Below are positions 2,516 through 7,354 of a stretch of 22,618 nt of DNA, piece after piece. Source of the stretch: a virus. The notes beneath the pieces are model-generated. The model was not told the origin of the DNA. It saw nothing but the letters and a program-made list of their open reading frames with translations, and ran no database searches. How positions within the stretch are numbered: the first letter of the stretch is position 1; each line of letters starts with the position of its first letter. Both the position numbers and the translations under genes were made by a program. The stretch is taken from positions 1 to 22,618 of IMG/VR virus record IMGVR_UViG_3300038566_000032; one strand, 5' to 3'.

Positions 2516-3697
2516 ATGACACAGAAGATATTATACTATGACTGTGAGACAACAATTAATAATAAAGGAGAGGATGCTGTTGGAAAACACCAAGCATCTC
2601 CCTACCACCCAGACAATGAGATCGTATATGAGGGATGGTTGTTTGAAGGAGACAAACAAGTAAGTACATTACGTTCCGATATACATGAGAATACGTTCCT
2701 TAATGTAGAAGAGTGTTGTCTCTTTGTAGCACATAATAGCTCCTTTGACTTGTCTCACCTATTGATGGGTGAACAAGGGGAGGAGTGGATGGAATGGATT
2801 ATTCGAGGAGGACGAATTTGGGACACACAAGTAGTTGAATACCTGCTAACAGGACAGGATAGTGTATGGCCTAGTTTGGATGATGTTAGTGAAAAATACG
2901 GAGGGACAGTTAAAGATAGTAGAATGAAGGAGTACTGGAAAGCTGGTGTGTGTACCAAGGATATTCCAGCAGATGAAATTATTCCATACTTAGAGCAGGA
3001 TGTTCTTAACCTCCAGATTATTCTTGAAAAGCAATTAGCTGAAGCCTATCGACTAGATATGATGCCCCTTATAGAGAGCCAGATGGACGCTAGGCTAGCT
3101 ACAATTGGTGCTGAGTACAATGGTATGGCCTTTGATCAGAAGGCTGCTAACAAGCTCTCTAAGAAGCTACAGAAGCAACTAGATGTTGTGGAAGATAAGC
3201 TACGTAATGAAATGGCATACACAATTGGCATTGAACTAGATGAAGTTAATCCGGGATCAACTAAACAATTAAGTGCTATGTTGTTTGGTGGTACTATTGA
3301 TGTTGTACGAGATATGCCTGCATTAGACGAAGATGGTGAGGAGGTTGTGTATAAGTCTGGTAAACGTAAGGGAGAAGTTAAGACTAAGAAAACAAAGATT
3401 CCTATTACAGTTAATGGACAATACATAAGTGATAAGCCTCTGGGACGTAGTGGTTCATATCCTGTAGGAGATGACATCATCACTAAGCTTCCAGTGAAGG
3501 GAGACTTTGTAACTAATCTACGGAAGTATCGAGAGCTAAAGAAACAACTCTCCACATACTTCGACGGATATGCTGCTCTTGTTTATCCTGATGGGTGTCT
3601 ACACGGCTCCATCAATCATTGTGCTACAGTGACAGGACGTATGAGTAGTAGCAACCCAAACCTTCAGAACATCTCCAATAAAGAGAGTAAGGAGTAG
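2516..3697 (+). CDS. Family A DNA polymerase, N-terminal cistron (3'-5' exonuclease and thumb)
   Basis: The N-terminal part of a T7 gp5-like polymerase. The proofreading exonuclease motifs are intact: ExoI YYDCETT (D9, E11), ExoII HNSSFD (N74, D78), WDT at D103, and ExoIII YLEQD (Y158, D162). The thumb region follows, and the frame stops just after the conserved TGRMSSSNPNLQNIS segment with the tail NKESKE and an amber codon. Polymerase motifs A, B and C are absent here and appear downstream from 4215. The two cistrons add up to 393 + 296 residues, close to T7 gp5 (704 aa), so nothing essential is missing. GAGGGGG at 2504-2510 selects the ATG at 2516; a GTG at 2513 is an alternative. The N- and C-parts must presumably associate as separate chains. 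Confidence 0.92.
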   Translation: MTQKILYYDCETTINNKGEDAVGKHQASPYHPDNEIVYEGWLFEGDKQVSTLRSDIHENTFLNVEECCLFVAHNSSFDLSHLLMGEQGEEWMEWIIRGGRIWDTQVVEYLLTGQDSVWPSLDDVSEKYGGTVKDSRMKEYWKAGVCTKDIPADEIIPYLEQDVLNLQIILEKQLAEAYRLDMMPLIESQMDARLATIGAEYNGMAFDQKAANKLSKKLQKQLDVVEDKLRNEMAYTIGIELDEVNPGSTKQLSAMLFGGTIDVVRDMPALDEDGEEVVYKSGKRKGEVKTKKTKIPITVNGQYISDKPLGRSGSYPVGDDIITKLPVKGDFVTNLRKYRELKKQLSTYFDGYAALVYPDGCLHGSINHCATVTGRMSSSNPNLQNISNKESKE

Positions 3698-3699
3698 CT

Positions 3700-3936
3700 A
3701 TGGACACTAGAATTATACAAGACCAAGACGGAGTTATAGTGATCACTAGCTATGATCCAAATGACGATGCTTGGATATTTATTAACAATAGAGCGGATTA
3801 TGATGGTAATGATGTAGGGTATGGCGCCACTAGTCCTGATGAATGGTCTGATGCATCAGCTATTAAAAAAGAATTAACATCGGAACAAGTGAAGCAAGTG
3901 TTTGAGGCATTAGGGGAGGTGTTTGATGCAATGTAA
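3700..3936 (+). CDS. Hypothetical acidic protein inserted between polymerase halves, 78 aa
   Basis: The first of two genes lying between the polymerase cistrons. AAGGAG at 3689-3694, which overlaps the end of the polymerase N-part, sits well for the ATG at 3700. The protein is strongly acidic, with an N-terminal beta-hairpin-like stretch (IIQDQDGVIVITSYD), a Tyr/Asp-rich middle and a C-terminal amphipathic helix. No nuclease (HNH, GIY-YIG, LAGLIDADG) signature is visible, so it is not an evident homing gene. Function unknown. Its ribosome-binding site and close coupling to the following gene suggest it is expressed. Confidence 0.65.
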   Translation: MDTRIIQDQDGVIVITSYDPNDDAWIFINNRADYDGNDVGYGATSPDEWSDASAIKKELTSEQVKQVFEALGEVFDAM

Positions 3937-4213
3937 AGCATGTGGACAAGAATCTGGATTAAAGCAGAAGAGAGCACTTGATCAGAACAACCAGAAAGAT
4001 ATTCCAGAAGATGAGCTGGAAGATTTATGTTCTAGCTGTCTCTCTATTGCACATGAATGCTATGCAGGGTATAATGTAGAAGCAGAGGTTAGAGATAAAA
4101 TGTTAGAATACTACTGCCGTTACCCTGACTTCTTTGACTTTGGTTCAGAGCTTGATGAACTCTTTGCTAATTACAAAGGGGAACAGGCTATTTGTAATAT
4201 AGTGAGCGAATAA
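3926..4213 (+). CDS. Small protein with CxxC/CxxC zinc-binding motif, inserted between polymerase halves
   Basis: A 95-aa protein starting at ATG 3926 after GGGGAGG (3913-3919) and overlapping the preceding gene by 11 bases. It opens MQCKACGQESG, with a second pair in LCSSCLS about 30 residues later, forming a plausible four-cysteine zinc site. Further cysteines occur in HECYAGY and YYCRYP. The rest is acidic and helical. HNH proteins also use CxxC pairs, but no HNH histidine/asparagine core follows. It ends two bases before the start of the polymerase C-terminal cistron. It could be a zinc-ribbon adaptor for DNA or polymerase, but that is unproven. Confidence 0.65.
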   Translation: MQCKACGQESGLKQKRALDQNNQKDIPEDELEDLCSSCLSIAHECYAGYNVEAEVRDKMLEYYCRYPDFFDFGSELDELFANYKGEQAICNIVSE

Positions 4214-4214
4214 T

Positions 4215-4491
4215 ATGAGCAGTGTAAATATTAAGACATGCTTCATTTCCAGATGGGGGAATGATGGTTATGTAGTGGAAGCAGACTTCTCACAGCTTGA
4301 GGTTATTGGAGCAGCCTATATCTCTGGTGATGAGAATATGTATGAGGATATTCTGAACGGCGTTGACAGCCACTCTCAGAGTGCTTCATGGCTAAATCCA
4401 TATTCATATGAAGACATCCGAGAAGGCTATTTAAATGGAGATAAGTTCTTCGATAAGATGAGAAAGAATGCAAAAGGTCCACGCTTTGAGT
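4215..4491 (+). CDS. Family A DNA polymerase, C-terminal cistron, exon 1 (motif A and start of motif B)
   Basis: The reading frame starts with its own ATG at 4215 and resumes the polymerase exactly where the upstream cistron stopped. Motif A is VEADFSQLE, with the catalytic Asp at residue 24. Motif B (O-helix) begins RKNAKGPRFEL, with R83, K87 and F91 matching Pol I R754, K758 and F762, and is then interrupted by the group I intron. Unspliced translation would end two codons later at TAA 4497-4499. With the intron removed, the Leu codon at the junction (T|TA) restores FELQYGAG. The ribosome-binding site is weak (GTGAG at 4202-4206), so coupling to the preceding gene is likely. Exon 1 plus exon 2 is 891 bases, giving 296 aa. 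Confidence 0.9.
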
Positions 4492-4793
4492 TAATATAAT
4501 AGCTCCTTCATGCAGGAATGCATGTCGAATAATCTGGTGAACTCAGGGGAACTCCAGCCCGGACAATCCTGAGCCAAGCTTGAGCTTCCTAGTACAATAT
4601 CTAGGAGGTACTTATGGTAATAAGTGCTGGGAAGCTTTTGAAGGTGCAACGACCATCCCGAAAGGGAGTACACAGAAGTCTGTGGAAGCGCCAGACATCC
4701 AGAACGGATGATGATATGGTCTGCTCTATATAGGAATATATAGCTGCATGTAACGATGCGGGGGAGGATTAACGACCCTCCTTGAACACAAGG
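4492..4793 (+). ncRNA. Self-splicing group I intron (302 nt) in the DNA polymerase gene
   Basis: The splice sites obey group I rules: exon 1 ends in U (4491) and the intron ends in G (4793). P1 pairs exon GAGU (4488-4491) with intron GCUC (4502-4505), giving a U4491·G4502 wobble at the 5' site, and extends by U4492-A4501 and A4493-U4500. P2 is the hairpin 4509-4524 (CATGCA, GGAA loop). The P/Q-like core AATCCTGAGCCAAG lies around 4565-4578. P7 is formed by GACCAT (4651-4656) with ATGGTC (4716-4721), with R-like GTGCAACGACC and S-like GATGATATGGTC contexts. Hairpins CCCGAAAGGG and CACAG/CTGTG lie inside P7 (P7.1/P7.2-like), suggesting subgroup IA. P9-like is 4726-4743 (CTATATA, GGAA loop). It encodes no endonuclease. 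Splicing restores the polymerase frame. Confidence 0.93.
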
Positions 4794-5407
4794 TACAATA
4801 CGGAGCTGGCGCTAAGAGCATTGCTGAGAATAACAACCTAACACAGGAACAAGCACAAGGCTTTATTGATCAATACTATGGACGATATGCTGGCCTAAAG
4901 GACTTCCAAGATTATGTTATTGAACAAGTGCAGTTGTCTCGTAAACCATCCCCTAAACGTACAGAGAGCCTACTACCTGCTGGTATAGGAGAATACAGAA
5001 GCATTACAGGAAGGCTGTATAGATTTACAGAGTATGATGCTCCAGAGTTCTTAGTAAGACGAGGCACTCGTACATCATTCTCTCCAACACAATGCAAAAA
5101 CTATCCCATACAGGGATTTGCTACAGGGGACATTGTTCCAGAGGTGTTGGGTAGAGTGTTTAGGGCTTTGCTTGCTGATGAAGAACTACGAGAGAAATGC
5201 CTAATCATTAACACAGTACATGACTCCATTATATTTGATTGTCATAAGAGTGTGTTAGATAAAGCATGTCGCTTAATTCGGAGTGTGATGGAAGATGCTC
5301 CTAAATGGATGGAAAAACGTTACGGATTTAAAATAGACCTGCCTTTGAATGTTGATGTTGAGTATGGACATTCATGGGATAGTTTGGAGAACTGGAAAGA
5401 TGAATGA
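4794..5407 (+). CDS. Family A DNA polymerase, C-terminal cistron, exon 2 (motif B end and motif C)
   Basis: Begins at the 3' splice site with TA completing a Leu codon, then QYGAGAKSIAENN, the second half of motif B. Palm motif C is TVHDSIIFD, with the catalytic Asp at about residue 236 of the spliced product (codon 5222-5224). The usual HDE is HDS here, as in some phage family A enzymes. The conserved YPIQG segment and a C-terminal VDVEYGHSWDSLENW tail are present. Together with exon 1 this is the complete fingers and palm. It needs the N-terminal cistron for exonuclease and thumb. Its last 8 bases overlap the next ATG (5400). Confidence 0.92.
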
Positions 5408-6976: not shown

Positions 6977-7354
6977 ATGCCGAAGGTAAAGAAGCCTAGA
7001 GTTCCTAGAACTAGGGCTGGGGAAACAATGACGGAGGCAGCTTTCTGGAGTTTTATCCGTAGTGGATTACGTTCCAAAAGTCAGCGCTGGCCTCCCCGTT
7101 ATCAAGTGTTAGCTGATGCTAAGAAGTCTGTGAAAGGAAAACGTCACAGATTTGAATACCAATGCGCTGAGTGTACTAAGTGGTTTAAGCAGAAGGAAGT
7201 TGAGGTGGATCATATAGAGCCATGTGGCTCATTGAAAAGCTTTGATGATCTGCCACAGTTTGTAGAACGATTATTCTGTGAGAAGGATAAATTAAGGGTG
7301 GTTTGTAAGCCCTGCCATAAAGCTATTACAGCAGCTGAGAGGAGTAAGAAATGA
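6977..7354 (+). CDS. HNH endonuclease, free-standing
   Basis: A 125-aa basic protein with an HNH (beta-beta-alpha-metal) domain in its C-terminal half. The zinc-knuckle pair CAEC (C63, C66) is followed by VDHIEPCGS (D78, H79), with KLRVVCKPCHKA (C110, C113, H114) closing the domain. The N-terminal 50 residues are rich in Lys/Arg/Pro and could contact DNA. GAGG at about 6966-6969 precedes the ATG, and the stop overlaps the next ATG (ATGA). Such free-standing HNH genes in phages are often homing endonucleases that spread themselves or a nearby intron. A repair, packaging or recombination nuclease is the alternative. It lies about 2.2 kb downstream of the group I intron. Confidence 0.85.
   Translation: MPKVKKPRVPRTRAGETMTEAAFWSFIRSGLRSKSQRWPPRYQVLADAKKSVKGKRHRFEYQCAECTKWFKQKEVEVDHIEPCGSLKSFDDLPQFVERLFCEKDKLRVVCKPCHKAITAAERSKK

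What the first reader, a model, noticed from the sequence alone, without database searches (positions are those of the whole stretch)
2516..5407. DNA polymerase split into two cistrons with two unrelated genes between them
The family A polymerase ends in-frame after the conserved NLQNIS segment at 3697 and restarts with its own ATG at 4215, continuing immediately into the segment leading to motif A. Two genes (3700-3936 and 3926-4213) with their own ribosome-binding sites fill the gap. The two chains sum to 689 aa, close to T7 gp5 (704 aa), so the halves together look complete and should assemble as two proteins. A full intron core cannot fit in the inserted DNA, which is nearly all coding.
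Basis: partly seen in the sequence, partly recalled or inferred. Interest (0 to 1): 0.8.

Follow-up and report, generated by a model that had tools for sequence, protein, structure and literature searches.

The report
Phage DNA polymerase in two pieces
This marine-type phage makes its DNA polymerase as two separate proteins instead of one; the same cut is found in a whole group of related phages, so it is a stable, real trait in which the spot between the halves has become a parking place for unrelated genes.

Summary
The split is real. polN (2516-3697) ends after NLQNIS; polC starts at ATG 4215; two codon-biased orphan genes with good ribosome-binding sites lie between them. The finding does not mention that polC is itself interrupted: a 302-nt group I intron (4492-4793, Rfam 75.5 bits) sits in motif B, so ORF 4215-4499 encodes only 94 aa and polC is complete (296 aa) only after splicing. 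The three pieces tile the Pfam DNA_pol_A model end to end. The break is not private to this contig: 38 of 127 related loci with a readable junction are split (ICP2, VP41s3, MEP401/402, ctOsX528, many IMG/VR contigs), always in one of two neighbouring loops before motif A. The gap content turns over: nothing (ATGA stop/start overlap), 9 bp, several HNH genes, an R67-DHFR-like gene, DUF3310, MT-A70, or orphans. No intron was found in any gap tested, and gap-free relatives rule out splicing there. Both halves evolve under purifying selection. Best reading: a stable two-chain family A polymerase with an insertion hotspot at the break. Split phage polymerases are known (T4-like gp43A/B; MEP401/402), so this is a new variant of a known kind, not a new category.

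The parts
2516..3697 (+). polN cistron: 3'-5' exonuclease domain plus N-terminal part of the polymerase domain, ends after NLQNIS-NKESKE (GTG at 2513 is an alternative start)
   Evidence: Pfam DNA_pol_A 6.5e-18 over profile 55-135; PHROG 9556 matched over 3-441 of 441, i.e. a family of free-standing N halves; exo residues D9, E11, D78, Y158, D162 invariant in A1
3700..3936 (+). inserted orphan gene, 78 aa; its Shine-Dalgarno AAGGAG lies in the last codons of polN
   Evidence: no relative in 50,697 phage records
3926..4213 (+). inserted orphan gene, 95 aa, with CxxC...CxxC pairs; overlaps the gene before it, stop TAA one base before the polC ATG
   Evidence: no relative found
4215..4491 (+). 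polC cistron, exon 1: motif A (VEADFSQLE) and first part of motif B (RKNAKGPRFE)
   Evidence: Pfam positions 137-217; PHROG 2573 from its position 4
4492..4793 (+). group I intron, 302 nt, no endonuclease ORF, interrupting motif B; boundaries inferred from the reading frame, the U-G pair in P1 (GAGU with GCUC) and a terminal G
   Evidence: Rfam RF00028 75.5 bits at 4482-4743; fold z -3.5; spliced product
4794..5407 (+). polC cistron, exon 2: rest of motif B (LQYGAG), motif C (VHDS), C-terminus; spliced polC is 296 aa
   Evidence: Pfam positions 217-380; PHROG 2573

Best explanation
The phage encodes a family A replicative polymerase as two chains, PolN (393-394 aa: exonuclease, thumb, entry to the palm up to NLQN) and PolC (296 aa after self-splicing of a group I intron: motifs A, B, C). 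The chains are translated separately from one operon and most likely assemble into one enzyme. The break lies in a loop between the NLQN segment and the helix leading to motif A. The split is an old, inherited trait of this phage group, probably first present as a stop/start overlap, and the junction has become a site where genes (homing endonucleases, small cargo genes, here two orphans) are gained and lost without further harm to the polymerase. Shown: the split, its conservation, insert turnover, absence of a detectable intron in the gap, purifying selection on the halves in relatives, full coverage of the domain. Inferred: splicing of the group I intron, assembly of the two chains, order of events.
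For: Same region broken in 38 of 127 readable loci, 89 unsplit; isolates ICP2, ICP2_2013, MJW, Saratov-12, JSF23, VP41s3, MEP401/402, and ctOsX528. Gap content unrelated between relatives: HNH of two PHROG families in ICP2 and MJW, DUF3310, R67-DHFR-like (2.7e-22), MT-A70 (5e-33), HNH_3 in L115, orphans, or none: -4 ATGA overlap in L101, L126-L130, L132, L133, L136, -1 in L118, -8 in L135, +9 in L019/L111. No Rfam intron in any gap tested. dN/dS 0.10-0.15 for N and 0.04-0.14 for C between related split phages. Pfam pieces tile without loss. AlphaFold model of unsplit relative L022 (pLDDT 88; best PDB matches Bst Pol I, Z 33) has both break sites in loops flanking the short helix 378-382 before the motif A strand 391-397. 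Trees group the split loci on one side (82/77; 69/24).
Against: No experiment here shows the two chains together. polC has a weak ribosome-binding site (GTGA), so its yield depends on coupling. One origin is not firmly supported, and the MEP401/ctOsX528 group breaks about 16 residues later, so a second split is possible. Selection could not be measured on the window itself, as no close relative was found.
Confidence: 0.83

Rival explanations
1. The gap 3698-4214 is an intron (or a trans-splicing site) that is removed from RNA, so that one chain is made, as suspected for MEP401/402 in PMC10580990 and as drawn by the join in the ICP2 record.
For: The ICP2 record annotates the polymerase as a two-part join around an HNH gene; PMC10580990 raises an intron; a real group I intron lies about 280 bp downstream.
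Against: No intron covariance match in the gap of the window even at E 5, nor at gathering threshold in the other split loci scanned; relatives with no gap are still split; the insert is coding by codon usage.
Confidence: 0.04
2. A homing endonuclease created the split by inserting into an intact polymerase gene, and the inserts seen now are its remains or replacements.
For: HNH genes sit in the gap of ICP2, MJW, JSF23 and L115; conserved segments of polymerase genes are classic homing sites; precedent Aeh1 nrdA/mobE (PMC2988022).
Against: In the L115-L136 group most tree representatives are insert-free with ATGA overlaps and the HNH form is nested among them, as if endonucleases entered an already split gene; the window's inserts have no endonuclease match.
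Confidence: 0.3
3. Separate breaks arose independently several times in a permissive region rather than once.
For: Two break sites about 16 residues apart (MEP401/ctOsX528 against the rest); low support for one split clade (69/24).
Against: Best trees need only one change of state; the two sites could be one break that later shifted.
Confidence: 0.4
4. The polymerase is broken or degenerating and another polymerase does the work.
For: Two interruptions in one gene; the window is a fragment, so another polymerase cannot be excluded directly.
Against: Catalytic residues are kept, the domain is complete, dN/dS is far below 1 for both halves in relatives, no second family A polymerase in the fragment.
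Confidence: 0.04
5. Readthrough or frameshifting at the junction makes a fused chain.
For: In ICP2_2013 and Saratov-12 the halves are in frame, separated by one TAA and three codons.
Against: The halves are in different frames in many other loci, including the window; two whole genes with their own stops lie between them here; polC has its own start in all but one of the split loci (no ATG, GTG or TTG was assigned in ctOsX528).
Confidence: 0.03

Closest known systems
Split DNA polymerase of Methylophilales phages MEP401/MEP402 and related metagenome genomes (Zobellviridae; PMC10580990)
   Same: Family A polymerase in two ORFs with a small unknown ORF between; related phage group
   Different: Break about 16 residues further downstream; one different orphan insert; no group I intron found there; the authors left an intron as possible
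Polymerase of Vibrio phage ICP2 and relatives (Icepovirus) and VP41s3
   Same: Same break after NLQN(I/L)SN, closest relatives of the window (40-42% identity for N, 55-60% for the C piece)
   Different: Gap holds HNH genes, an 88-aa orphan or nothing; no intron in polC; ICP2 is annotated as a join
Split gp43A/gp43B of T4-like Aeromonas phages 25 and 44RR (family B)
   Same: Replicative polymerase in two cistrons; phage 25 halves co-purify and are active (PMC2988022)
   Different: Different polymerase family and break; inserts are a seg endonuclease or untranslated sequence
Aeh1 nrdA split by mobE
   Same: Enzyme gene split in a functionally critical region, two chains form an active enzyme (PMC2988022)
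   Different: Ribonucleotide reductase, endonuclease insert
Group I introns in DNA polymerase genes of T7-like phages (e.g. Salmonella phage Vi06)
   Same: Similar intron core (about 83% over the matching parts) in motif B of the polymerase
   Different: Window intron sits about four codons further on and has no endonuclease ORF

Membership tests
Family A DNA polymerase (PF00476) | Whole polymerase domain with motifs A, B and C | tested here: met
   Three pieces cover profile 55-380; DFSQLE, R-K-F-Y of motif B and HDS present in the spliced product
Family A DNA polymerase (PF00476) | 3'-5' exonuclease residues in the N-terminal part | tested here: met
   D9, E11, D78, Y158, D162 invariant among five split relatives
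Split (two-chain) phage replicative polymerase | Two separate cistrons, each with own start, together equal to the unsplit enzyme | tested here: met
Split (two-chain) phage replicative polymerase | Chains associate and are active | not testable with these tools
   Needs co-expression; precedent in phage 25 only (PMC2988022)
Split polymerase of Zobellviridae (MEP401 type) | Break at the same residue | tested here: not met
   MEP break follows SRYG, about 16 residues later
Split polymerase of ICP2/VP41s3 type | Break after NLQN(I/L)SN and nearest in the tree | tested here: met
Intron-interrupted gene (gap 3698-4214) | Known intron family core in the gap | tested here: not met
Group I intron (4492-4793) | Covariance match above gathering score and in-frame splice product | tested here: met
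Group I intron (4492-4793) | Self-splicing | not testable with these tools
   Needs in vitro transcription or RT-PCR

The most novel reading that the evidence does not exclude
A widespread lineage of podoviruses uses an obligate two-subunit family A polymerase that has been split since the ancestor of the group, with the inter-subunit junction acting as a long-lived landing site where endonucleases and cargo genes are exchanged inside the replication operon without damaging it.
Probability: 0.5. Interest if true: 0.65.

Novelty: new variant of a known kind. Interest (0 to 1): 0.5.

Why it matters
Split replicative polymerases were known mainly from a few T4-like phages and were noted once in Zobellviridae. 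Here a family A polymerase is split in many phages at one of two neighbouring loops before motif A, with and without inserts, so one can ask how the break arises, why it lasts and whether endonucleases make such splits or merely use them. It also gives natural break points for two-part Pol I-type enzymes, and warns that annotation pipelines will miss or wrongly join these polymerases.

Tried and rejected
Intron in the gap: permissive Rfam scan of 3600-4300 gave only a chance snoRNA match. Relatives of the two inserted genes: none in phage records; the 95-aa protein also gave none in viral contigs. A C-half pattern search gave only three loci. StenR_269 and HTVC033P were left out of the later trees as long branches. 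Two hmmscan calls failed on a wrong coordinate. The original ICP2 paper is not held. Pseudoalteromonas phage HP1 came up only through its introns; no polymerase half was found in the stretch fetched. Intein and chimeric assembly were considered and dropped because of frames and recurrence.

Full report
Observation. polN ends ...NPNLQNISNKESKE* at 3697; an orphan ORF of 78 aa follows two bases later, a second of 95 aa overlaps it, and polC starts at ATG 4215. Both orphans have strong Shine-Dalgarno matches and the phage's codon bias in the annotated frame only. polC has a weak site and starts one base after the stop of the gene before it, which points to coupled translation.

What the finding leaves out. 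ORF 4215-4499 stops after 94 aa because a group I intron begins at 4492. Rfam reports RF00028 with 75.5 bits over 4482-4743. The boundaries 4492-4793 follow from P1 (GAGU pairing GCUC with a U-G at the splice site), a terminal G and the frame; splicing yields KGPRFELQYGAG and a polC of 296 aa. The intron lies in motif B, resembles introns of T7-like phages such as Vi06, but sits about four codons further on. polN, exon 1 and exon 2 match Pfam DNA_pol_A positions 55-137, 137-217 and 217-380, so nothing is lost.

Relatives. The window is an IMG/VR virus fragment. Its nearest relatives are Zobellviridae: ICP2 and VP41s3. Their polymerases break at the same place. PHROGs already holds a family (9556) of N halves that ends where polN ends, and one (2573) of C halves. 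I collected relatives with several queries and classified each locus whose junction could be read: 38 split, 89 unsplit. These counts reflect how loci were sampled and include near-identical contigs; they are not frequencies in nature.

Break and inserts. In most split loci polN ends within a few residues after NLQN/NMQN and polC starts shortly before motif A. In MEP401, MEP402, ctOsX528 and L096-L100 the break is about 16 residues later. Gap contents are unrelated: HNH genes of different families (ICP2, JSF23; MJW; L115), an R67-DHFR-like gene (ctOsX528), DUF3310 plus small ORFs (L009 group), an MT-A70 gene (L125), orphans (VP41s3, MEP, L121, window), 9 bp (ICP2_2013, Saratov-12), or a stop/start overlap (L101, L118, L126-L130, L132, L133, L135, L136). 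No Rfam intron was found in any gap scanned. So the break is found with many different inserts and with none.

Selection and structure. Between related split phages dN/dS is 0.10-0.15 for N and 0.04-0.14 for C. The AlphaFold model of unsplit relative L022 (pLDDT 88) matches Bst Pol I (Z 33, 544 residues aligned). Its NLQN is residues 370-373; both break sites fall in loops on either side of helix 378-382, before the motif A strand 391-397. PolN of the window alone gives a confident model (pLDDT 88). A two-chain model could not be run.

History. Trees of the joined chains place all split loci on one side (support 82/77; 69/24 with the wider set): one origin is favoured, not shown. In the L115-L136 group insert-free overlaps prevail among the tree representatives and the HNH form is nested, which suggests that endonucleases entered an already split gene.

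Known work. PMC10580990 reports split polymerases in MEP401/402 and most of their metagenome relatives and leaves an intron open. PMC2988022 reviews phage 25 gp43A/B, whose halves co-purify with activity, and Aeh1 NrdA. The window is therefore a new variant of a known kind: a family A polymerase split at the ICP2-type site, with two orphans in the gap and a group I intron in the second cistron.

Noticed in passing
window 4492-4793: Group I intron without endonuclease ORF inside motif B of polC, related to introns of T7-like phage polymerase genes but at a site about four codons away.
   Followed up: yes
L105 4639-4845 (ctOsX528, MW202697.1): An R67-type dihydrofolate reductase-like gene (PF06442, E 2.7e-22) sits between the two polymerase halves.
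   Followed up: partly
L125, about 2157-2714: An MT-A70 methyltransferase gene (E 5e-33) occupies the polymerase gap.
   Followed up: partly
L003 4946-5216 and 5720-6001 (Pseudoalteromonas phage HP1): Two group I introns at gathering threshold around ORFs annotated as hypothetical; the genes they interrupt were not identified.
   Followed up: no
L019 4650-4664 and L111: In ICP2_2013_A_Haiti and Saratov-12 the two polymerase halves are in frame and separated by one TAA and three codons.
   Followed up: yes
window 6977-7354: Free-standing HNH endonuclease gene (PHROG 1985, 7e-30) in the replication block.
   Followed up: no
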